A DNA stretch of 64,000 nt from Anthracocystis setariae (lineage: Eukaryota > Basidiomycota > Ustilaginomycetes > Ustilaginales > Ustilaginaceae), in contig CAKMXJ010000011.1 of NCBI GenBank assembly GCA_928724745.1, positions 124,001 to 188,000 of the forward strand. Reading direction: 5' to 3'. Under the pieces are notes generated by a model, which was not told the DNA's origin, did no database searches, and saw only the letters and a list, made by a program, of their open reading frames with translations. Positions 29,757 to 53,556 of this stretch are shown here, one piece after another. The position numbers were made by a program, and so were the translations under genes. Every line of letters begins with the position of its first letter. The first letter of the stretch is position 1.

Positions 29757-30764
29757 TTACAGGAGAGAGTTAGAAGCAACGTTGGAACTTGAACGAAGAG
29801 AACGCTTCTTGCGGAGAGTCTTCTCGCGTTTCTCGAGAGTCTTGCGAACTGTGCCAACAATCCTAATGATGTTAGTCGGATCGTATGAGCGGGGCATTGA
29901 CCTGTTCAGCGCTTTTGCTGTGATTGCGTCCTTGGCGGCGTTTTCGAGTTCTTCGAGCTGCTTTAGGGCCTCCTCGAACAGCGCCATCTTCTTCGTTCGA
30001 TAACCCTTGAATCCACCGCCACGGCATCGCTTTCCAGCCACGATGCAGTGGTCGCATACGTGGGTGGTTGGAGTCCGAGGTCTTCCTTTGTGGTTCTTGC
30101 CGACGCCATACGTGCAATGGACGCCGGCCTCGACACAGGGGGTGCAGCCTGGTGTCGAGACAAGGAATCCACCAACGATCGGGTCCGAGAGCTTGGGAAA
30201 GTCAGCCACCACGGCTCTGACTGTCCCAGCCGGGACAACGAATCGATGCTGTTTATCGAGAGACTTGCTCTCGTCGAGGGGCCCTGACCAAGCCTGGTGG
30301 ATGGGGAGGGGCCAAATAATATTACCACCCGGCGGCTGTGGCGACGAAGCAGGCCGGGGCTGGAAATGATGAGGGTTGGTGACCAGGTGGTCAGCCAAAC
30401 TCGGTTGCAGCGGGTGGCGGTGTATGGGAGCCGGCCCGTCATCGTCGTCCTCGTCATCGTCGTTGTCGGGAGGGATGACCATGTCATCATCCTCTCCCGT
30501 GCGAGGGCCTTCGGGCACCTCGACTCCATCACTGTTATGCAGGAACAAGGGCTGAAGCCCGGCGATGTTACGACTGCTGGTCATGAGTGACTCAGCAGTT
30601 GCCTCGCTCGTTGGAGCTAAGGCCCGTGCGATTGTGCCCCCACTTGGTTCATCCGGGGGCGAAGGGATGGTAGTGGTCATGCCAGGCGTGGCAGAGGACG
30701 ACGATGTTGGTGGTGATGCCTCGCCGTCGTTGGCGGGCAGAGGGGAGGTGGTGGAGGGAGCCAT
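29757..30764 (-). CDS. Cys-cluster (Zn2Cys6-like) protein, paralogue of the retrotransposon's extra ORF
   Basis: The product is 335 aa from ATG 30764; the longer reading starts with TTG. The N-terminal half is disordered, with Ser/Pro and an acidic run (DNDDDEDDDD). The conserved half starts with IIWPLPIHQAWSGPLD, then KQHRFVVPAGTVR. Six cysteines follow with spacing C-X2-C-X6-C-X19-C-X2-C-X6-C. The C-terminal part is helical and basic (NIIRIVGTVRKTLEKREKTLRKK). Both 3-Cys halves match the C-X2-C-X6-C half of Gal4-type clusters, but the 19-residue linker is longer than the usual 5-12 and the basic residues after Cys2 are missing. The same block, with identical spacing, is encoded in the retrotransposon at 43851-45608. 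No LTR traces flank this copy. It may be a host gene captured by the element or a domesticated element ORF. A GTAAGA next to the stop could be a donor for an unseen last exon. Confidence 0.72.
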   Translation of the reverse strand: MAPSTTSPLPANDGEASPPTSSSSATPGMTTTIPSPPDEPSGGTIARALAPTSEATAESLMTSSRNIAGLQPLFLHNSDGVEVPEGPRTGEDDDMVIPPDNDDDEDDDDGPAPIHRHPLQPSLADHLVTNPHHFQPRPASSPQPPGGNIIWPLPIHQAWSGPLDESKSLDKQHRFVVPAGTVRAVVADFPKLSDPIVGGFLVSTPGCTPCVEAGVHCTYGVGKNHKGRPRTPTTHVCDHCIVAGKRCRGGGFKGYRTKKMALFEEALKQLEELENAAKDAITAKALNRSMPRSYDPTNIIRIVGTVRKTLEKREKTLRKKRSLRSSSNVASNSLL

Positions 30765-31029
30765 CCAGAAAAGTATATCGTCTGACAAGTCGGGAGCTGG
30801 AAATGCTAACGTGCACGGTGACTGCAGTAGTGGCGGTCAGAGTGGAGTCGCGTGTGTGCATGTTGCGTGCTCATCTTTTTGGAAACTGACCAGTTCTCCT
30901 CCGCCCTTGCTTTCATCCTTCCACTCACCATCATGTCTGGGATACCCTTCTGAACAGCTGCCGCAACTCGACAAAAAGCCAGCACAACTACTTCATCGGA
31001 CGCCTTTGCTAGCGTCAAGGGCCGACATC

Positions 31030-42830: not shown

Positions 42831-42835
42831 GAAAA
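42831..42835. repeat. Target-site duplication, left (GAAAA)
   Basis: GAAAA directly abuts the outer end of the left LTR and is repeated at 51152-51156 beyond the right LTR. A 5-bp duplication is the usual size for copia-type integrases. Confidence 0.85.
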
Positions 42836-42909
42836 TATTAGAGTCTAAAAGTCAATCGATGCGAAGTAGTTATCGCGGCGTTAGTTTATCCAATGTTAGA
42901 TACGACTTA

Positions 42910-42931
42910 CGACACTCGGTAATGGATGTTT
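42910..42931. repeat. 22-bp palindrome family, LTR copy P1 (imperfect)
   Basis: The sequence CGACACTCGG-TAATGGATGTTT aligns without gaps to the 22-bp family consensus, whose half-site is CAACAYTCAGT followed by its own reverse complement. The same copy is at 50284 in the other LTR. Confidence 0.65.
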
Positions 42932-43106
42932 GACATCCGATATCCTATTTCCTAAGTTGCGATCTTGGGAGAGTGTCGTGAGTCGTTAAGTCCGTGCTCG
43001 AACTATCACAGAGTTTGATGTCTGTGACTTAGTAGTGCTAGGACAATATCGATATTGAACGGGGCGCAGCGGTTTAGAAGCTTCGAAGGATTCGAACGAG
43101 GAAGGT

Positions 43107-43128
43107 CAACATCCAATATCGGATGTTG
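43107..43128. repeat. 22-bp palindrome family, LTR copy P2
   Basis: The arms CAACATCC and GGATGTTG surround AATATC. The copy in the other LTR is at 50481-50502. Confidence 0.85.
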
Positions 43129-43321
43129 ATGCTAGTCGTCAGATCTTATAAGTCGGTAAGTAAGGTAGTGATTCGATGATTATATTCACTCTCTCGGGTT
43201 CTGGTCCCGAGTCTTATATACATATGTCTTGGTCCTAACTCGCACAGCGAAGGTGTCCCCATCTTCGCTATACGTCCTATGCGTTTCCCATAGTAATTAT
43301 CTTGTCCTCCGTCTGTGTCCC

Positions 43322-43343
43322 CAACACTCATTATTGAGTGTTT
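43322..43343. repeat. 22-bp palindrome family, LTR copy P3
   Basis: The arms CAACACTCA and TGAGTGTTT surround TTAT. The copy in the other LTR is at 50696-50717. Confidence 0.8.
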
Positions 43344-43556
43344 CTCTTCATCGTGTGTGCCTTCGTTTCGCTACTGAGTTTCGTACCTCAGTCACGATTG
43401 GTTCGGATCTCGTCCGCCCGTCCTTCTCTCCTCTTCCATGCTGGGCAGAGGGTTCCATTCGGGGCGGACCGGTTTGCCATCCCTCCAATGCGGTCCTGCC
43501 ATTGGGCGATGGGTGTGTGGGTTCGTAATTGAGGCTCATGATTTGTCGAGTAGTCT

Positions 43557-43578
43557 CAACATTCAGTACTGAATGTTG
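43557..43578. repeat. 22-bp palindrome family, LTR copy P4 (perfect)
   Basis: The half-site CAACATTCAGT is followed directly by its reverse complement, giving perfect dyad symmetry over 22 bp. The copy in the other LTR is at 50931-50952. Confidence 0.92.
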
Positions 43579-43692
43579 GAATCCGTCGACGGACCAATGG
43601 GAGTACTGTCGGGTGTCGCGTGGGTACGAAAAATGTCTAAATCCGCCCGGTGAACATTGAGACCGGTGTCTCGACATTCACCGTCGCGTGTG

Positions 43693-43714
43693 CAACACTC
43701 ATTACTGAGTGTTG
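43693..43714. repeat. 22-bp palindrome family, LTR copy P5
   Basis: The arms CAACACTCA and TGAGTGTTG surround TTAC. The copy in the other LTR is at 51067-51088. Confidence 0.88.
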
Positions 43715-43777
43715 TGTGCCGATATGTGATGTGCCTGATTGTGAGATGAAAAGCTGATTCGCACGACAAATCCAACA

Positions 43778-43788
43778 GTCCCCCTCAT
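43778..43788 (-). other. Polypurine tract next to the 3' LTR
   Basis: On the minus strand GATGAGGGGGAC directly precedes the LTR's TGTTGG. The purine run GAGGGGGA is the expected plus-strand primer site for reverse transcription. Confidence 0.65.
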
Positions 43789-43850
43789 CGAGCACTCACA
43801 TCACACGGCACAGACAAGTACATCGCATTCAAGACGTGACATTGATTTTC

Positions 43851-45608
43851 TTACTCTTCGTGTTCCTGGTCCGTGTTTCCACGTCCAGTCTTACGTCCGA
43901 CGAGCGCTTCACGCTCGTCGAACATCTTCCGAAGAGTTCCGGCAATCCTGATGACGTTGGCCGGAGTCCAGAGGCGAGGCTTGTTCTTCTCGCCCCTCAC
44001 GTTCCTGTCGCCCTTGATGCCGGCTTCCGCTGCTTGTCGCAGCTCCTCCAGTCCAGCTCGGATTTCACCCGCAAGTACCACTCGTCGGGTGCGCTTACCT
44101 TCGAATCCAGTCCCTCGACAAATCCTGCCGCTGACGATGCAGGCGTCGCAGGCACCCTTGTCTGTTGCGCGATTCCGGCCCATGTGGTTGACACCGGCGC
44201 CGTACGTGCAAAGGATCCTGCGCATCTCGCAGGGCTTGCACGACGGCTCGGCGACGCGGAATCCGGGATGCAGGTCGTCACCATGCTTGGGGAAGTGCTC
44301 GGATGAGCAACGTACTTCCCCAGCAGGTACGACAAACCTGCGTTGCTTCTCCAGGCCGATATCGGGGTCCATCGGCCCGGACCAAGCAAGATGCGGTGGC
44401 AAGGGCCACCTTGCGCATCCACCAGCGGGCTCGGGTGCCAGGCTGGGAGGGTTTCGACGAGAGGCGCTTGCATCCTCTTCGTCGTCGTCGTCGATGGGAT
44501 TACCCTTGTCGTCCTGAGGGTTTCGAAAGAGAGATTGGCTGGGCAGAGGAAGGTCGACCGCAGTCAGGGAAGTGGAGTGAGAGAGGGAGGTGGCATTCCG
44601 AGCCGACCTCAACCTCAGGGCGCTCGTGCTCGGTCGAGCAGAGACAGGCGTCGTAGGAGCCGTGCTTCCGGGAGCGAAGGGCGGCGAAGATGGTTCGTCC
44701 GCCATGCCGCGCCGGGCAGAGGGCGAAGGGGATGCCGTGCTTCTTGAGGCGGACCGCGTTGAAGCCGAGCCACGATTGGCGGGCGGCGAAGGTGAAGGGG
44801 GCGGCACTTGGATGGGAGGTGGAGATGCTGCGCCTGTTGAGGCGGGCAGCGGCGAGGTCGAGCCACGAGTGGCGGACGGTGAAATCGGCGAGATCGGAAG
44901 TAGCTGCTCATCCCCGTGGAAGGCAGGCGAGAGCGAGAGTCTTGCCACACCTGTTGAGGTGGGCGGCGTCGTGGTGGTGGTGGTGGTCAAGTCTCGAGTG
45001 GCGGAGGCCTCGGTGGAGTGGACTGGAGTCATGCCGTCGTCGGCAGAGGACTCGTGAACGTGATCCAGAGCCGTGCTATCGTTAGCAGGGGGCTCGTCGA
45101 TGTCCATGGCAGTTGCGCCAGAGGAACCGGTTGATGGCGCCGAGGTGGCAGTCGCGTCGTCGTTGGCGACGGGGTCGTTGTTGGCCGTTGTGGCTGTGGT
45201 GGTGGTGGCCGACTGGGCTGCGCGCTTCGCAGCGGCAGCCAGTACGGCTTGGCGTTGTGCTTGTCTTTGCTTCTTGGTTAATGCCATCGTGTATGGCGGA
45301 GGGAACGAGTGTGGTGGTGGTGAGGAAGGAGGAGAGAGAGAGGGAGGAGAAGAAGGAGAAGAGAGGGAAGGCGAAGGAGCTGAGTTCAGGATCTCTTTGT
45401 CTTCTTCCGCCTTCTCTCTTTGTCTGATTGTTCGGTTCTCCGCAAGTAGGGTCGGTGACATTCCTATAGTGCGTTCTTCAAGTCTGGCTCGCGTCTTCGA
45501 GGGCACTTGAGCGGTGTGAGAGTTTGTAGATGCTGTTCTGCGCAGCCGTTTAATGAAGTCGATGCGCCGCGAGTGCGCAGAAGATATTCGGTTTCTGGTT
45601 ACCGACAT
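43851..45608 (-). CDS. Extra retrotransposon ORF: Cys-cluster (Zn2Cys6-like) protein
   Basis: This ORF lies between pol and the 3' LTR in the same direction. From ATG 45608 it gives 585 aa; alternative starts are 45461 and 45287. The last begins MALTKKQRQAQRQ and may be the natural start, since the first ~105 residues look like leader and a Ser/Pro run. A disordered middle (residues ~130-400) is rich in Thr, Ser and Pro. The conserved part has WPLPPHLAWSGPMD, KQRRFVVPAGEVR, then C-X2-C-X6-C-X19-C-X2-C-X6-C, then RTRRVVLAGEI and NVIRIAGTLRKMF. The same block and spacing occur in the free-standing gene at 29757-30764. No transmembrane segment is present, so it is not an envelope-like protein. 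A zinc-binding, nucleic-acid-binding role is the simplest inference; it resembles Gal4-type clusters only in Cys spacing. Confidence 0.85.
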   Translation of the reverse strand: MSVTRNRISSAHSRRIDFIKRLRRTASTNSHTAQVPSKTRARLEERTIGMSPTLLAENRTIRQREKAEEDKEILNSAPSPSLSSPSSPPSLSPPSSPPPHSFPPPYTMALTKKQRQAQRQAVLAAAAKRAAQSATTTTATTANNDPVANDDATATSAPSTGSSGATAMDIDEPPANDSTALDHVHESSADDGMTPVHSTEASATRDLTTTTTTTPPTSTGVARLSLSPAFHGDEQLLPISPISPSATRGSTSPLPASTGAASPPPIQVPPPSPSPPANRGSASTRSASRSTASPSPSARRGMADEPSSPPFAPGSTAPTTPVSARPSTSALRLRSARNATSLSHSTSLTAVDLPLPSQSLFRNPQDDKGNPIDDDDEEDASASRRNPPSLAPEPAGGCARWPLPPHLAWSGPMDPDIGLEKQRRFVVPAGEVRCSSEHFPKHGDDLHPGFRVAEPSCKPCEMRRILCTYGAGVNHMGRNRATDKGACDACIVSGRICRGTGFEGKRTRRVVLAGEIRAGLEELRQAAEAGIKGDRNVRGEKNKPRLWTPANVIRIAGTLRKMFDEREALVGRKTGRGNTDQEHEE

Positions 45609-45624
45609 TCAGTACTGAATGTAG
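45603..45624. repeat. 22-bp palindrome at the start codon of the extra ORF
   Basis: The central 18 bp are perfectly symmetric (ACATTCAGT and its reverse complement). On the minus strand its TGAATGT arm supplies the first ATG of the extra ORF. Confidence 0.88.
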
Positions 45625-45780
45625 CGGCGGTGTGTGAGCTTTGGGAGGGCCGATAATTGTTTTTGGTTGACCTTTGTGGGTCCTTTTATCCTTTTCTGAT
45701 TTTTTGTTTCGCGTTTGAATTTTCCTTGAGGCGTTTCGGCAAGCTGTCAAGTAATGCCGGGTATTTACATAGGCAGGGTC

Positions 45781-45802
45781 CAACGTTCATTACCGAGTGT
45801 TG
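45781..45802. repeat. 22-bp palindrome at the stop codon of pol
   Basis: The imperfect copy CAACGTTCAT-TACCGAGTGTTG contains the pol stop TAA when read on the minus strand. With the copy at 45603 it brackets the pol/extra-ORF spacer. Confidence 0.78.
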
Positions 45803-48800
45803 GGTTTCGTTGTCGGTTTTTGGCATTCGATCCCGAGTGCGTCCCTGTTGGCCGTAATCTTGTTCTTCTCGAGTGCCTTTGTCAAGATGTCAGCCAATTG
45901 ATCATTTGTCGATACTGGTTTCACAGAGAGCACCCCTGATTCCTGGTACTCTCGTGTGATGTGGTACTTGAGCCTGAAATGCTTGGTTCTGTTATGGAAC
46001 TTCGGCTCTTTGCTGAGCTCGATTGCTGCTCTGTTGTCCACCATGAGGTCTGTCGGGGTTTTGACTTGTAAGCCGAGTTCAGACATTACCCATCGAGTCC
46101 ATATGATCTCCTTACCGGCCTCTGCCATCGCGACGTATTCAGCGTATGTGGTGGAGTCCGTGATGATCGACTGGAGTTTTGATACCCAGCTGTACGGCAT
46201 TGAGGCGACAGTGTTGACAATTCCAGATGTGGATCGCGATGTCTCAGTGTCCCCCGCGTGATCTGCATCGGTGAATGTGCGCAACCATTTTCCAAAGTCA
46301 ACATTTGATGCTGAATGTTGGGAATCGAGTATGCGTCTGTACATTAGTCCGTGCGTGTTGGTTCCCTTGAGGTAACGGAGTAGGTGTTTCGCTTGGACCA
46401 TGGCATTTGCATGTGGATGTGCGAGTTCTCGGCTGAGCTTTTGGATTGCGAAGGCAATGTCAGGCCTGGTGCAGGTAGCTATGTATAGCATCTGGCCGAT
46501 GATGCTTCTGTACGTGGAGTGTTCTTGTGGGGGGAGCGGCTCTCCCCCTTTGAGGTCGCTACTTGGGTTAAGTGGTGTGTGGACGATGTTCGCGGATTCT
46601 AGGCCGTATGTTGTGAGGAGGCGATTGATGTAACTGGTCTGCGTTAGGTGGATCGTCTTCGAAGTTTGGTCGACTTGTATGCCGAGGATATAATCCAATA
46701 GTTCGCCGCCGGTCATCTTGAAATGCTTTCGAAGCTCAGTCATGACACTGGAGGCTGAGTCTTTGTTCTCAGCAAAGATGAGGATGTCATCAACGTAGAG
46801 TGTTAAGATCACGCGACCGGTCTCAGCATTTGATACTGAATGTTTGATATATAGTGCCGAATCGTGTTTACTTCTTGTGAAACCCATTCCTCGCAGTGTG
46901 GAGTCCGCCTTGTGGTACCAAGTCCGCCCAGCTTGCTTGAGTCCGTAGAGTGACTTATTGAGCTTGCAGACCGTTCCATCGAGTGATCCTCGCGGATACT
47001 CTGGTGTTGGCGGTGGCCTCATGTAGAGGTCTTTGTCGATCTCGCCGTTCAGGTATGCGGTCGAGACATCCATTTGGTAAATGCTCCATCCAACTTGTAA
47101 GCTGATGATCATCAAGAGTCTCAGAGTGGAGATCTTGACTACTGGGGCGAAGGTCTCATCATAGTCGATGCCGTGCTTCTGGGCGAATCCTTGGGCCACA
47201 AGTCTTGCTTTGTACTTATCGATCGATCCATCTGACTTTCTCTTAATCTTGAAGACCCATCGGCTTCCGATGATGTTGGATCCAGATGGTGGTTTGGTCA
47301 TCGTCCATGTGTTGTTGTCTTTGTGCGACAGAAGTTCTATATCGATTGCTTCTTTCCACAAGTTCCAATCTGGTCTTCGATACGCTTGAGCGATTGTGCG
47401 AGGTTCATCATCGAGCTGTCCAACTGGATCGGTGGTTTCAACATCCGATACTGAAAATTCCAACTCGTCGACGACTTCTCGTACCGCGTTGGCCTGGAGC
47501 CTTGGCGATCCCGGCGGTGACCCAGGGGGAGTTGCTATCCCTTGCGCGCGTTCTTCTGGGGTTAGGTAAGGCAAAGTATTGCGTTCAGGGATTTCGTTGA
47601 GGGTTGTGACATCAGTGTTGTTGGTGCGTGTTTTGGTGGGTGAGTCTCCAACATTCAGTACTGGATTGTCGTACTCGTCACTGGATGTTGGCAATTTCGC
47701 GTCTGATTTGCGAATGCCAGCGAAGGGGAATGATGTCTTGTCGAAGGTACAGTGAACCTGTGTCAAGTATTGACATTCGTCTTTATCGTATAGCTTGTAA
47801 GCCTTGGTTCCTGGTGTCACACCGAGGTATACGCAGGGCACGGCTCGATTGTCCAAAGTGGTTCGTTTTTCGGCGGGAATATGGGCAAATGCTGCACATC
47901 CGAAGGTGCGTACCATAGTTAAGTCCGTGGGTCTGCCATATAACGCTTTGTATGGCGTCTTCATGCCGTTTCCTTTCGTTGGTAATCGATTGTTGAGGTA
48001 CACAGCATGCAGGAGTGCGTCGCCCCACATGGTGTCTGGGATGCTTGACTGAATCATGATGCAACGCACAATGTTGAAGAGCGTTCGATTCATTCTCTCC
48101 GCGACACCATTCTGCTCGGGAGCGAACGGTGATGTCCGTTCATGCAGTATGCCGTGTCGGCCAAGGTAGTCTGTCATTTTGTTACTCGTGTACTCTCCTC
48201 CATTATCAGTACGGAGTCGCTTCATCTGGTTGCCAGTTTGCTTCTCCATGACTGTCTTGTATTCTTGCAGGCATCCAAAGACTTCACTCTTGCGAGAAAT
48301 GAGATAAACCATTGTGAATCGAGTGCAATTGTCGATGAATGTGACTGCGTACCGATGGCCTTGTGGAGTCTCATCTGGAATCGGACCCTTGACGTCGGAG
48401 TGTACAAGCTGAAGTGGGGTGTCAACACTCAGTACTGAGTGTTGAAAGGGCAGCTTGGATGATTTACCCACTTCGCAGGTTTCGCACTTGGTTTGTGACT
48501 TTCGCGTGTTGATGGTCATTCCGGGGACTGATTTGGCAATCTCTTCAAGACGTTGTTTTCCTGGATGCCCGAGGCGTTTGTGCCAGTCGTCAGCCTTGGT
48601 GTTGTGATCAGCGGCGAGTCCGGCGAAGTCTATACCGACCTGGTCGACGTATGTGAGTGGTCCAATATGTACACCTCTGCAGGTAACTCTTCCGCTCCTA
48701 GTTTGGGCGATCGTTTGCTTGTCAGTCGTCGTAATTCTGACTTTCTTTCGCATGATTCCTGTTGACAGCAAGTTGACGCTGAAGGATGGTATGTAGGCGA

Positions 48801-50205
48801 CGTTGGTGAGGGTGATCCTATTGGTTAACCCATTCCCTACGTTGACTTCCATTTCTACAGTACCAAGTCCTTCGATCTTGACTGGGACATCGTTTGCAAC
48901 CCAGATTGGTTTCATTGAGACGCCAATATGAAGATCCAAGAAGAGATCTTTGTTACAGCAGATGTGTCTGCTCGCACCCGAGTCCATGAGCCACATCGTC
49001 GTTCTTGGATGTGTTGAATCGGTAATTGAGTACGCGTTCTCATTATTGGGTCCCTGGACTCGGTTCTGAGTGTTTGATCCTGGATTATTGGATCCCTGGA
49101 CTCGGTTCTGAATGTTTGACCCTGGCCGATCTACCTTTGGGTTATTGCAGTTCCTCGACAAGTGCCCCTTTTGTTGGCAATTGTAGCAAGTCATTTGTTC
49201 AATAGGGACCCTCTTCTTACTTTTGGACATTGGACGCTGAGTGTTCTTCTTTCCCTTCTTGTTCCCATCATTCGCGTAGTATGCCGAGGAGTTGTTCTTG
49301 TGTTTGCTTTCCAGTCCATGGTTGTTGAGTCCCAAGCGTAGTTCTTCACTCCTGAGTCTAGTGACGATGGAGTCGAGCTCGACTTTCTCGTCGATGGTCT
49401 GACTTGCGACAGTGAACATTTCGTTTTCGTTCCCGATCCTGTGTATGATCATCTGTCCTTGCTCTCGGCAAGCTCGGTACGTTTCTTTGATCTGGGCCGC
49501 TATGTTCTCGTATTCCTTCCGTAATCCTTTCATTAGGATACTGTATTTCTTGTGGAAGGTAATAGTGTATCCAGCAAGCATGAGGTGATCTGCGAGCTGG
49601 TTGATGCGACCGACGAAGCCATCGATGGTTCGTCTGTCTTGCCTTAGGCTGTTGAACTCCGTCTCCATCTCTTCGAGCTGCCACTTCATGGATTTGGCAA
49701 ATCGATCCTCGAGTGTCGTCCATATCTGGTGAGCGTCCTCGAGATCATTGATGGTGTGCTTGATGTCGTTCGATAAGCTACTTCTGAGCATGCCGCATGC
49801 GGTCAGGTTTGCGTTGAGCCAGTCTCCATATGTGATGTCGTCTTCCGATGGTCGGGGTAGAGTCCCTCTGACGATTCCGTACACCCGTATTCCCTTTTGC
49901 ATCAATACATCGATGCATTTATCTTTCCATGTGTAGTAATCTTTGGCTTGTTCGAGTTTCGGTAGTCAAAGGTGGTTTTGCGATGCATTTGATTCCGTCA
50001 TTGCGAACACAGATCCGGGTGTGGGCGGGTTGCGAGGGGTGTTGATATTCGTAGTTACGTTGGCGACACTCAGTAATGAGTTGTCGAATTTGTTAGTGTC
50101 TTGTGTGTCCCTGCTGATAGTTTCAGCGATCAAATCGAGGGGACGTGATCTTGAGCGAGTTCCTTGGTAGGTACCTTCAGAGTTTCCGTCAGGCGTTGGG
50201 CTCAT
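45790..50205 (-). CDS. Retrotransposon Gag-Pol polyprotein (copia type) with one in-frame UGA
   Basis: One frame of 1,472 codons runs from ATG 50205 to TAA 45790 and is broken only by TGA at 49968-49966, after a 79-residue leader. The next codons are CTA CCG AAA, encoding LPKLEQAKDYYTWK, the usual start of a copia Gag core. Initiation at ATG 49902 would skip this motif. Domains then follow in order: Gag core; CCHC knuckle CYNCQQKGHLSRNC; protease DSGASRHIC; integrase HHCC (HKRLGHPGKQR to CETCEVGKS) and DDE core (HSDVKGPI, LRTDNGGEYTS, PEQNGVAERMNR); reverse transcriptase with FAPVVK, MDVSTAYLNG and LYVDDILIF; RNase H with DADHAGD and TTYAEYVAM. All catalytic residues that I can check are present. 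Several interdomain linkers carry the 22-bp palindrome, read as QHS(V/A)x(S/N)V. The TAA stop lies in another palindrome copy. Confidence 0.93.
46299..46320. repeat. 22-bp palindrome inside pol (before RNase H)
   Basis: The arms CAACATT and AATGTTG are separated by TGATGCTG. In the Pol frame it reads QHSASNV, in the linker just before the RNase H start. Confidence 0.8.
46824..46845. repeat. 22-bp palindrome inside reverse transcriptase
   Basis: This imperfect copy reads KHSVSNA in Pol, just before the strand that leads to YVDD. Confidence 0.7.
47439..47460. repeat. 22-bp palindrome inside pol, decayed copy
   Basis: CAACATCCGA-TACTGAAAATTC keeps one arm. It reads EFSVSDV in the integrase/RT linker. 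Confidence 0.6.
47649..47690. repeat. Two abutting 22-bp palindrome relics in pol
   Basis: The copies at 47649-47670 and 47669-47690 lie in the integrase C-terminal linker. The first reads DNPVLNV in Pol. Each keeps one good arm. Confidence 0.6.
48423..48444. repeat. 22-bp palindrome inside integrase (perfect)
   Basis: The half-site CAACACTCAGT and its reverse complement are complete. It reads QHSVLSV in Pol, between the HHCC and DDE parts of integrase. Confidence 0.92.
49054..49117. repeat. Two tandem palindrome-like units in Gag near the zinc knuckle
   Basis: The units at 49054-49075 and 49096-49117 (42 bp apart) share CTGGACTCGGTTCTGARTGTTT. They encode the repeated peptide N-x-Q-N-R-V-Q-G. 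A weaker unit lies at 49225-49246. They are read one base out of phase with the Pol copies, and the TGA this would create is CGA instead. Confidence 0.6.
49966..49968 (-). other. In-frame UGA followed by CUA in Gag
   Basis: The minus strand reads CTT TGA CTA CCG, with the same frame open on both sides. UGA-CUA is a known readthrough context, and it was reported to drive readthrough of metabolic enzymes in Ustilago maydis. It may be programmed readthrough or a single nonsense mutation. Confidence 0.7.
50064..50085. repeat. 22-bp palindrome in the Gag leader
   Basis: CGACACTCAG-TAATGAGTTGTC reads DNSLLSV in the Gag leader, in the same phase as the Pol copies. Confidence 0.75.
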
Positions 50206-50209
50206 AACC
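50193..50209 (-). other. Primer-binding site matching initiator tRNA-Met anticodon arm
   Basis: Directly inside the 5' LTR the minus strand reads GGTTATGAGCCCAACGC. The plus strand, GCGTTGGGCTCATAACC, is tRNA-iMet anticodon-arm sequence, including the CAU anticodon, with one mismatch to the common eukaryotic form GCGCTGGGCTCATAACC. Use of an internal half-tRNA primer is known for Drosophila copia and yeast Ty5. The Gag ATG (50205-50203) lies inside this site. Confidence 0.8.
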
Positions 50210-51151
50210 TATTAGAGTCTAAAAGTCAATCGATGCGAAGTAGTTATCGCGGCGTTAGTTTATCCAATGTTAGATACGACTTACGACACTCGGTAATGGA
50301 TGTTTGACATCCGATATCCTATTTCCTAAGTTGCGATCTTGGGAGAGTGTCGTGAGTCGTTAAGTCCGTGCTCGAACTATCACAGAGTTTGATGTCTGTG
50401 ACTTAGTAGTGCTAGGACAATATCGATATTGAACGGGGCGCAGCGGTTTAGAAGCTTCGAAGGATTCGAACGAGGAAGGTCAACATCCAATATCGGATGT
50501 TGATGCTAGTCGTCAGATCTTATAAGTCGGTAAGTAAGGTAGTGATTCGATGATTATATTCACTCTCTCGGGTTCTGGTCCCGAGTCTTATATACATATG
50601 TCTTGGTCCTAACTCGCACAGCGAAGGTGTCCCCATCTTCGCTATACGTCCTATGCGTTTCCCATAGTAATTATCTTGTCCTCCGTCTGTGTCCCCAACA
50701 CTCATTATTGAGTGTTTCTCTTCATCGTGTGTGCCTTCGTTTCGCTACTGAGTTTCGTACCTCAGTCACAATTGGTTCGGATCTCGTCCGCCCGTCCTTC
50801 TCTCCTCTTCCATGCTGGGCAGAGGGTTCCATTCGGGGCGGACCGGTTTGCCATCCCTCCAATGCGGTCCTGCCATTGGGCGATGGGTGTGTGGGTTCGT
50901 AATTGAGGCTCATGATTCGTCGAGTAGTCTCAACATTCAGTACTGAATGTTGGAATCCGTCGACGGACCAATGGGAGTACTGTCGGGTGTCGCGTGGGTA
51001 CGAAAAATGTCTAAATCCGCCCGGTGAACATTGAGACCGGTGTCTCGACATTCACCGTCGCGTGTGCAACACTCATTACTGAGTGTTGTGTGCCGATATG
51101 TGATGTGCCTGATTGTGAGATGAAAAGCTGATTCGCACGACGAATCCAACA
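50210..51151 (-). repeat. Long terminal repeat (5' LTR, promoter copy)
   Basis: This is the upstream LTR in the element's orientation. A TATATAAG on the minus strand at 50587-50594 is a plausible TATA box, about 560 bp into the LTR. The five palindromes sit at positions 7,374 bp to the right of those in the other copy. Confidence 0.95.
50587..50594 (-). promoter_or_regulatory. Candidate LTR TATA box
   Basis: TATATAAG reads on the minus strand inside the 5' LTR. It lies about 380 bp upstream of the primer-binding site, a normal promoter place for an LTR element. The same sequence occurs in the other LTR at 43213-43220. Confidence 0.55.
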
Positions 51152-51156
51152 GAAAA
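51152..51156. repeat. Target-site duplication, right (GAAAA)
   Basis: This copy matches 42831-42835 and follows the CCAACA end of the right LTR. Confidence 0.85.
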
Positions 51157-51866: not shown

Positions 51867-53556
51867 CAGTAGTGCACTGTATTCCATGTGCAGCCCGCCA
51901 CCGAACAGCAGAAATTTGCAGAAATTTTGAATCAAGTTGTGCAGATCACTTTGATCGACGCGTTGGGGTTTAGCGCTTGCTCGGCTGCGGCTGCCAGCAA
52001 ATCAATTTGGTGCTTTTTCTTTTACGCGAAACTCACACTGCACTGCACTGCACTGCACTGCACTGCACTGCACTGCACTGCACTGCACTGCACTGCACGA
52101 AAACTGAAACAAACACGTCCATCGTCGAAACGTCTCCTGGCATCTCCCGACTTGACATGGCAGTACAGACAGCACCGAAGCATCAGGGATTCATACAAAG
52201 CCACCACAACTGGTTACACAGCCAGTGATACTGTACCAGAAGGAGCCGGAGATGCCAGAGAAGCCCGTTGTCAAGATCCACTATTCTGACTTGTGAACCA
52301 AGTGCTCGGTTGCTGTTCCGAAGGCGATCACAGTGTATTGATAGGCCGATGAGAAAAAGAAGGAAAGAAGAGTCTCGCTGGGACAAGCGAGCGATACGCA
52401 AACATGCTACTGTACAGTGCTATACTGTACTCTGCTTCTGTGCTGTCGGCATCTGACTCTGATTCATGCAAGCCATTTCCTTCTCCGCCACAGAAAGAGT
52501 TGCTGTACAACGATACGCGGGGACATTATAATAAATACAGGGCTGCTCAGCGGCTCAGCTTGGCGGTCAACGCTTGTTTATCACATCGCCTGAGCTGGGA
52601 GATGTCGGATGTGCACTCTCGGACTGGCCGTTCACCAGCGCTTTGATTTGACCTGTCCACTGCATCCTGCCTCCCACATTCCGCTTACCAACTGCCTGCC
52701 TTTAGCTACACGGTCAACGTCTTTCTCGTGTACTGTATCTGAGACACGATCTCGAGCTGATGAACCTCATCTCGGCCCCGGAAATGATACCCTACTGTAC
52801 CGTACCGTACCGTACTGTACTGTACTTTGCTTCCTTGTTTACTTTTCTTTGCTTCGGCAACGATTTCGATGGGCCTGCAATATGATGACGGACAAATCCT
52901 CTTTGTATCTAGATCTTCTGAGTTTGGCTTTCCAGAAAGCTGTCCATTGTCGTTCTGCATAGGTTGCGCATACAGCGAACCGCCTTACGGACACTTGTTT
53001 TGCCCTCCTCGCTTGTCCTCTTCCTCTAAGCTCATCCGACAGCCAAGCATGCCGTTCCCAAGCCTCGTCCTCCTTCATTTCCCTTGCAGGCACTTTCATG
53101 CATTGTCAGGCCCCACTCTGGACTCTCCTCCTGTCACAATCATTACCCTTTTTTGTTCGTCTTACCCTGACTTATCCCTTTCTCGCTTCTTGACTTGCTT
53201 CCATCAACACCATCTCCACCTCCCTCCTCTTCCTCAAATACTGTACATCCAACTGCATTCAATCTTGATCATCCCTAATCCCCCCCCCCCCCACCCCCTC
53301 CTCATACTTTCTCTTCACACCTTCCGCTAGTCGACTTGTTCCTCCGTTCCTTTGACCACTCTCGTTTCAAGCCTTGCCATCACCACAATCTGCAGCTGCA
53401 CTCGCCTCGCCTGTCTTGTATTCCAACACGTTCACCTTCCCTTTCGATCAAACCATCTGCACCTTCCTTCCAGCTTTGGTCGCCAACACACACCCTCTTC
53501 AGTCACCAGCTCTTCCACCTCCCAGCAAACGTATTGAATTGTCATCTTAAGCCACA
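51867..53556. other. Gene-free region upstream of the ThuA-like gene
   Basis: This 1.7-kb stretch carries the (CACTG)12 array, TACTGTA/CCGTA pentamers at 52794-52825 and a C-rich, pyrimidine-dominated leader at about 53150-53550 including a C run near 53281. Open frames here are compositionally biased and unsupported. Confidence 0.55.
52036..52095. repeat. (CACTG)12 pentanucleotide array
   Basis: Twelve perfect tandem copies of CACTG fill 60 bp, the cleanest of the window's pentamer microsatellites. Confidence 0.95.

What the first reader, a model, noticed from the sequence alone, without database searches (positions are those of the whole stretch)
42836..51151. About 22 copies of one 22-bp palindrome scattered through the retrotransposon
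A dyad-symmetric 22-mer (half-site CAACAYTCAGT followed by its reverse complement) occurs five times in each LTR (42910, 43107, 43322, 43557, 43693 and +7,374) and about twelve times internally (45603, 45781, 46299, 46824, 47439, 47649, 47669, 48423, 49054, 49096, 49225, 50064). All align over the same 22 bp without gaps, from perfect to decayed. I noticed none elsewhere in the window. Chance cannot explain this density.
Basis: seen in the sequence. Interest (0 to 1): 0.9.

Follow-up and report, generated by a model that had tools for sequence, protein, structure and literature searches.

The report
Family-specific palindromes written through retrotransposons
A jumping element in a fungus carries about twenty copies of one 22-letter DNA palindrome, also inside its genes; related elements keep palindromes at the same places but spell them differently, which suggests each element family marks itself for its own DNA-binding protein.

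Summary
The element (42836-51151, minus strand) is a Ty1/copia retrotransposon with 20 sites scoring 16/22 or more; the rest of the window has none. Related families in the same 21.5-Mb genome (pol of B, C, D 72%, 68%, 46% identical to A) each carry their own dispersed palindrome: B AAACACGC-N6-GCGTGTTT, C AAACCCGACGTCGGGTTT, D a weaker TTACCGACGTCGGTAA. In aligned pol genes of A, B and C, many site centres fall on exactly the same nucleotide (5 A/B coincidences, 0.009 expected), yet the sequence has switched in concert: sites within a family are 71-84% identical, the same site between families 41-59%. This implies co-evolution with a sequence-specific partner. No wobble bias, and a motif in both orientations in family G, point to double-stranded DNA. 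The likeliest partner is a fast-evolving second ORF downstream of pol with a Zn2Cys6-like cysteine pattern, working like the VANC anti-silencing system of Arabidopsis. Binding and function are untested. Against a simple one-protein story, family E has a dense motif but no second ORF, and family F has the ORF but no motif found.

The parts
50210..51151 (-). 5' LTR (942 bp, begins TGTTGG), 5 sites
42836..43777 (-). 3' LTR (942 bp), the same 5 sites
42831..42835 (.). probable target-site duplication GAAAA, also at 51152-51156
   Evidence: read from the sequence
50197..50209 (-). primer-binding-site-like stretch GGTTATGAGCCCA next to the 5' LTR (resemblance to the copia half-tRNA site is recalled)
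   Evidence: sequence
45790..49905 (-). gag-pol ORF, 1371 aa from the listed start; copia gag, zinc knuckle, integrase, RVT_2
43851..45608 (-). ORF2, 585 aa, C-X2-C-X6-C-X19-C-X2-C-X6-C; proposed DNA-binding partner
   Evidence: no Pfam match of its own
51067..51088 (.). palindrome site (LTR; copy at 43693)
50931..50952 (.). perfect palindrome site (LTR; copy at 43557)
50696..50717 (.). palindrome site (LTR; copy at 43322)
50481..50502 (.). palindrome site (LTR; copy at 43107)
50284..50305 (.). palindrome site (LTR; copy at 42910)
50064..50085 (.). palindrome site between 5' LTR and the listed pol start
49225..49246 (.). weak site in pol, same column as weak sites of B, B2, B3
49096..49117 (.). 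decayed site in a 42-bp duplication in pol
49054..49075 (.). decayed site in a 42-bp duplication in pol
48423..48444 (.). perfect palindrome in pol just before the integrase core; same nucleotide column in B, B2, B3, C
47649..47670 (.). site in pol, family A only
47439..47460 (.). site in pol between integrase and RT domains, same column in B, B2, B3, C
46824..46845 (.). site in the RT domain, same column in B, B2, B3, C
46299..46320 (.). site in pol downstream of the RT domain, same column in B, B2, B3
45781..45802 (.). site at the end of pol
45603..45624 (.). site at the upstream edge of ORF2

Best explanation
Each palindrome is a double-stranded DNA recognition site for a homodimeric, family-specific DNA-binding protein, most likely the element's own ORF2 protein (a diverged Zn2Cys6-type domain). 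The dispersed sites act as an address that lets the protein coat every copy of its own family, LTRs and pol alike, and keep those copies out of host silencing or switch them on, as VANC proteins do for VANDAL transposons. When the protein's specificity shifts, the sites shift with it one by one, even inside pol, where the protein sequence gives way at tolerant positions. Shown: dispersed sites, family specificity, identical base positions, concerted change, ORF2 constrained and fast-evolving. Inferred: that a protein binds, that ORF2 is that protein, that it is a dimer, and that the effect is anti-silencing or activation.
For: The A, B and C models score 20, 18 and 18 sites in their own elements (expected 0.1-0.2) and 0-6 in the others. 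Exact-centre coincidences in aligned pol genes: A/B 5 (6 and 9 sites; expected 0.009), A/C 3 (6 and 7; 0.008), B/C 4 (9 and 7; 0.015). Same-site identity between families is 0.41-0.59 with flanks at 0.60-0.68; within a family, different sites are 0.71-0.84 identical with flanks at 0.24-0.26. LTR sites vary less than other LTR columns (0.070 vs 0.112; 128 of 5000 circular shifts as low), with outer arms mostly fixed and the centre freer, as for a dimer footprint. Mismatched pairs show no excess of G-T over A-C (41 vs 59), against pairing in sense RNA. In family G a non-palindromic word GACTTC occurs 28 times (6.7 expected), 11 sense and 17 antisense. ORF2 with paired cysteine motifs follows pol in A, B, B2, B3, C and D, and in F and G. 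Zn_clus is the only Pfam family matched by members of the domain alignment, in 5 of 6, below threshold. ORF2 dN/dS is 0.27-0.34 within the B group and its dN is 7-8 times that of pol. The genome has one Argonaute-domain hit and cytosine methylase hits at three loci, so silencing machinery probably exists.
Against: Family E has the densest motif (TGCGCA, 58 in pol against 4.2 in codon shuffles) but no ORF2. Family F has ORF2 but no dispersed motif that I could find. The window's own ORF2 is the one member of six without a Zn_clus match, and the others are below the curated cut-off. The PDB search found nothing credible and the AlphaFold model is too poor to use (mean pLDDT 44). For B and C the same-site identity equals that of the flanks (0.59 vs 0.60), so the contrast there rests on the similarity among sites within a family. 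Family D shares only one column with B and C and none with A. A and B half-sites lack the CGG triplet that I recall as typical of Gal4-type proteins. VANC21 binds non-coding regions (PMC5735166), unlike here. No binding, expression or chromatin data exist here.
Confidence: 0.5

Rival explanations
1. The sites are bound by host transcription factors, a different one for each family, recruited for promoter or enhancer activity.
For: Family E has a dense motif without ORF2. Five of the distinct sites lie in the LTR.
Against: Many sites lie inside pol, far from the LTR. The A pattern gives 136 sites against 0 in the control, and the 50 that were listed are in or near copies of the element or relatives of its LTR; 55.7 kb of window host DNA holds none at 18/22. 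A host factor should have other targets. Concerted switching across families is hard to get with fixed host factors.
Confidence: 0.2
2. ORF2 bound to the sites is a self-repressor or copy-number control, rather than an anti-silencer.
For: The same anatomy fits; ORF2 is under purifying selection.
Against: Self-repression would not obviously need about 20 sites through pol or rapid change of specificity (inference).
Confidence: 0.12
3. The sites work at RNA level (dimerisation, packaging, Gag binding), and all sites co-evolve because they pair with each other or share an RNA-binding partner.
For: Self-complementary sites in one RNA could pair (inference; no call tested it).
Against: G-T wobble is not preferred over A-C (41 vs 59); family G's non-palindromic word occurs in both orientations.
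Confidence: 0.08
4. The sites are landing beacons that guide integration to resident copies.
For: Some copies cluster, e.g. C32:638-689 kb and C15:500-515 kb.
Against: 36 outer flanks (52 kb) of family A LTRs hold no A site at 18/22 or better; three of them hold B or C sites (3 and 5).
Confidence: 0.03
5. The palindrome is a small mobile unit that inserted repeatedly.
For: Two sites sit in a 42-bp duplication.
Against: Sites at shared columns align in the same reading phase between families, with different sequences; a 22-bp insertion would shift the reading frame.
Confidence: 0.02

Closest known systems
VANC/VANDAL anti-silencing system of Arabidopsis (PMC5735166: outline, part 1 of the Results and the Discussion read; PMC10398659: abstract and section list seen)
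   Same: Copies of a short motif accumulated within each transposon family; related families have different motifs; an element-encoded protein with variable regions is the partner (shown there, proposed here).
   Different: VANC21 binds a 9-base motif YAGTATTAY in non-coding regions, and targets often form tandem repeats; VANDALs are Mutator-like DNA transposons (recalled). Here the elements are LTR retrotransposons, the sites are long dyads at fixed positions, many in coding sequence, and no relation of the candidate protein to VANC was found (Pfam only; no direct comparison). Function is untested here.
Fungal Zn2Cys6 (Gal4-type) DNA-binding proteins
   Same: Six-cysteine pattern in ORF2, with dyad sites as expected of dimers.
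   Different: The middle loop is 16-19 residues, the Pfam score is below cut-off, and A and B half-sites lack CGG (typical CGG recalled).
TET/JBP dioxygenases encoded by fungal DNA transposons (PMC12730594: start of the abstract seen in a listing)
   Same: Fungal transposons carrying a gene that may counter DNA methylation.
   Different: An enzyme in DNA transposons; no dispersed motif code is mentioned in what I saw.
TnpA of En/Spm, binding multiple subterminal sites (recalled, no call)
   Same: Element-encoded protein with many sites in its own element.
   Different: DNA transposon; sites near the ends.
Ty1/copia retrotransposons
   Same: The element is one by domain content and order.
   Different: Extra downstream ORF and the dispersed sites.

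Membership tests
Ty1/copia LTR retrotransposon | LTRs, copia gag, integrase before RVT_2 | tested here: met
   rve 497-595, RVT_2 864-1112 in the pol protein
Ty1/copia LTR retrotransposon | short target-site duplication and primer-binding site | tested here: met
   GAAAA on both sides and GGTTATGAGCCCA, read; the tRNA match itself was not tested
VANC/VANDAL system | Mutator-like DNA transposon | tested here: not met
   copia reverse transcriptase and integrase
VANC/VANDAL system | motif accumulated in the element, differing between related families | tested here: met
VANC/VANDAL system | motifs in non-coding regions, often tandem | tested here: not met
   many sites in pol, at dispersed positions
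VANC/VANDAL system | element-encoded protein binds the motif and removes silent marks | not testable with these tools
   no experimental data
VANC/VANDAL system | protein homologous to VANC | tested here: inconclusive
   no Pfam family reaches its cut-off in ORF2; no homologue in two protein searches with the family B ORF2; no direct comparison with VANC made
Zn2Cys6 domain | six spaced cysteines | tested here: met
   all six invariant in 6 of 6 aligned members
Zn2Cys6 domain | Pfam Zn_clus above the curated cut-off | tested here: not met
   5 of 6 members match, best E 0.12, the window's own ORF2 does not; D 9.3 and the stand-alone copy 8.1 bits against 21
Zn2Cys6 domain | fold | tested here: inconclusive
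   pLDDT 44, not used for fold search

The most novel reading that the evidence does not exclude
Most copia families of this fungus, and at least one gypsy family, carry a family-specific DNA address code written across the element, coding sequence included, strong enough to dictate amino acids. This would be a general self/non-self recognition layer of fungal retrotransposons, with several kinds of reader (the ORF2 zinc-cluster protein for families A-D and G, another reader for E and the gypsy family), and a natural series of co-evolving DNA-binding domains and sites.
Probability: 0.35. Interest if true: 0.95.

Novelty: new variant of a known kind. Interest (0 to 1): 0.88.

Why it matters
If right, fungal retrotransposons have evolved their own sequence-specific recognition system in parallel with the plant VANC system, and overwrite their own protein-coding sequence to keep it. 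Families within one genome give matched pairs of a DNA-binding domain and its target, which makes the evolution of DNA-binding specificity and of escape from silencing directly testable. The test for concerted change at homologous positions can be run on any genome.

Tried and rejected
Rejected: mobile palindrome unit (sites at shared columns keep phase); RNA pairing (no wobble bias; both orientations in family G); integration beacon (0 A sites in 36 outer flanks); chance.

Literature: in the listings I saw no title or abstract start that describes this; I opened PMC5735166 and PMC10398659 in part and passages of PMC9603552. The library lacks most subscription journals, so this does not show that nothing is in print. 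The family D motif is weak: in the EM run 46 places pass 9 bits against 1.5 in shuffles scored with the same fitted matrix, an unfair control; I rely on the seed count (6 copies against at most 3). Family E does not stand out in the second-order shuffle test, 6 copies against a mean of 6.2, because its motif sets the word content; the codon shuffle is the better test. Gypsy locus L047 exceeds its shuffles with a GC-rich 16-mer (8 against at most 5), which I take for composition, not tested further. Rows dropped: the LTR analysis was given 34 loci plus the window LTR; L038 was left out as too partial and identical LTRs were counted once, leaving 27. One search kept 36 distinct flanks of 60, dropping those that match the element's interior and duplicates.
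Full report
WHAT IS THERE. The window is C11:124001-188000 of an unnamed 21.5-Mb genome. The best protein matches of pol are in Moesziomyces antarcticus (61% over 71% of the query) and Ustilago esculenta (52% over 24%), so the organism is probably a smut fungus (inference). The element at 42836-51151 is a Ty1/copia retrotransposon on the minus strand with 942-bp LTRs, a 1371-aa gag-pol ORF and a second 585-aa ORF downstream. The 22 stated positions were read; 20 of them score 16/22 or more, and nothing outside the element in the window does, against about 0.5 per 64 kb in a Markov control. Genome-wide the pattern has 136 sites at up to 3 mismatches and 0 for the reversed control. The 50 sites that the tool listed are in or near copies of this element or diverged relatives of its LTR: 42 in hits, 2 within 1.6 kb, 6 in four loci with LTR relatives. 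The other 86 were not seen one by one.

RELATED FAMILIES HAVE OTHER PALINDROMES. The pol protein finds families at about 72% and 67% identity in the same genome. I fetched one copy of each and three more copies; D is 46% identical to A in pol. Family B (L035; subfamily B3 L042) carries sites like CAACACGCAACGTTGCGTGTTT, B2 (L040) the same outer arms with a variable centre such as GGGCCC, family C (L036) AAACCCGACGTCGGGTTT, and family D (L041) a weaker TTACCGACGTCGGTAA. A search for the best palindromic 16-mer, with no prior motif, gives 7, 14, 11, 7, 12 and 6 copies in A, B, B3, B2, C and D against at most 3 in 20 second-order shuffles each, and 2 in each of six host segments of the window. 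In an earlier run a host segment from 52001 gave 5, from a tandem repeat. The A, B and C models fit their own elements (20, 18, 18 sites at 17/22 or better; expected 0.1-0.2) and the others much less (A model: 6 in B, 1 in C; B model: 4 in A, 0 in C; C model: 0 in A, 2 in B). Genome-wide, at up to 1 mismatch, the C pattern has 190 sites against 1 in its control, and the B pattern 146 against 4. Of 50 listed C sites, 34 lie in element hits, 13 within 1.6 kb and 3 in neither; of those 3, one is close to a copia RT hit and two have the spacing of family C sites (inference). The B sites were not checked one by one.

SAME PLACES, DIFFERENT LETTERS. On a codon alignment of six pol genes, centres of sites coincide to the base: column 2018 (just before the integrase core), 3107 (between integrase and RT) and 3731 (in RT) in A, B, B2, B3 and C; 4256 (after RT) in A, B, B2 and B3; 1210 in the same four (weak); 2772 in B, B2, B3, C and D. 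At 15 bits or more, exact coincidences are A/B 5 (6 and 9 sites, 0.009 expected), A/C 3 (6 and 7, 0.008), B/C 4 (9 and 7, 0.015), A/B2 4, B2/C 4, B/B2 7, B/B3 8, C/D 1, B/D 1 and A/D 0; the rest of the sites in pol do not coincide. Shared sites keep their reading phase, and the encoded peptides change with the palindrome, for example QHSVLSVD in A, KHATSRVE in B and RNPTSGST in C, inside well conserved pol. Identity of the same site between families is 0.41-0.59 with flanks at 0.60-0.68; identity of different sites within a family is 0.71-0.84 with flanks at 0.24-0.26 (over 4 shared pol sites for A with B or B2, and 3 for pairs with C). For B against C the same-site identity is no lower than that of the flanks (0.59 vs 0.60). 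This is concerted change at homologous positions, and it is the strongest single result. It calls for a shared partner with sequence specificity.

DNA OR RNA. In 27 distinct LTRs the five sites vary less than the rest (0.070 vs 0.112; 128 of 5000 circular shifts as low), with the outer arms mostly fixed and the centre freer; at the fifth site alone the difference is absent (0.057 vs flanks 0.055). Mismatched pairs in 76 sites show 41 G-T and 59 A-C, so no sense-RNA wobble bias. Family G has a non-palindromic word, GACTTC, 28 times (6.7 expected), 11 in sense and 17 in antisense. Both favour double-stranded DNA.

OTHER FAMILIES. The genome has 81 copia RT matches, one of them below the family's cut-off. 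Of nine copia copies examined (A, B, B2, B3, C, D, E, F, G), eight have a dispersed motif and eight have a downstream ORF with paired cysteine motifs, but not the same eight. Family E (L043) has no second ORF and TGCGCA 58 times in pol against a codon-shuffle mean of 4.2 (maximum 9). Family F (L044) has the ORF and no motif found. Family G pol has YGACTTCG 11 times against 0.7. Of three gypsy loci, one (L048) has CCGGGA 50 times in pol against 11.1. So either more than one kind of reader exists or the ORF2 link is wrong.

THE CANDIDATE PARTNER. ORF2 follows pol in A-D, with C-X2-C-X6-C-X16 to 19-C-X2-C-X6-C in its C-terminal part. Fungal Zn2Cys6 is the only Pfam family matched by members of the domain alignment, in 5 of 6, all below cut-off (best E 0.12); the window's own ORF2 is the sixth, without a match. 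Within the B group dN/dS is 0.27-0.34 for ORF2 and 0.07 for pol, and ORF2 dN is 7-8 times that of pol. B, B2 and B3 share both the outer arms and a near-identical first cysteine loop, while A and C differ in both (few data). Two protein searches with the family B ORF2 found no homologue, so its range outside this genome is unknown. Of sites at 16/22 or better, none of 21 in A, 1 of 22 in B and 2 weak ones of 20 in C start within ORF2.

MECHANISM. I think ORF2 dimers bind the sites and mark the family's own copies against silencing or for expression. The genome has one Argonaute-domain hit and cytosine methylase hits at three loci. In Ustilago hordei only 27 of 904 LTR retrotransposons were expressed in two growth conditions (PMC9603552, passages read), so silencing is plausible in this group. 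VANC proteins of Arabidopsis do the analogous thing (PMC5735166, parts read). Binding, partner and effect are all untested. My estimates: a sequence-specific partner that co-evolves with the sites 0.85; that it is ORF2 0.62, of which anti-silencing or activation 0.5 and self-repression 0.12.

Noticed in passing
window 29757-30788 (-): A stand-alone, open ORF2-like reading frame (343 aa, 73% identical to family B2 ORF2, pairwise dN/dS 0.19) with only an LTR edge and 3' stretch of the element beside it, between open reading frames that look like host genes; possibly a remnant, possibly retained.
   Followed up: partly
L043 447-4936: Copia family E without ORF2 carries TGCGCA 58 times in pol against 4.2 in codon shuffles; its pol holds 26 Ala-Gln and 19 Ala-His pairs in 1331 residues, perhaps as a result (no control for the pairs).
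   Followed up: partly
L045 682-7057: Copia family G carries GACTTC 28 times in both orientations.
   Followed up: partly
L048: A gypsy locus carries CCGGGA 50 times in pol against 11.1 in codon shuffles.
   Followed up: no
window 43851-45600 (-): The ORF2 body is almost free of palindromes in A and B although pol and LTRs have many.
   Followed up: no
L038 (C23:89000-93500): One stretch holds both A-type and B-type palindromes, probably nested or adjacent remnants.
   Followed up: no
window 51888-52289: A tandem repeat of TGCAC-like units gives palindromic words (5 copies of CTGCACTGCAGTGCAG in the segment from 52001).
   Followed up: no
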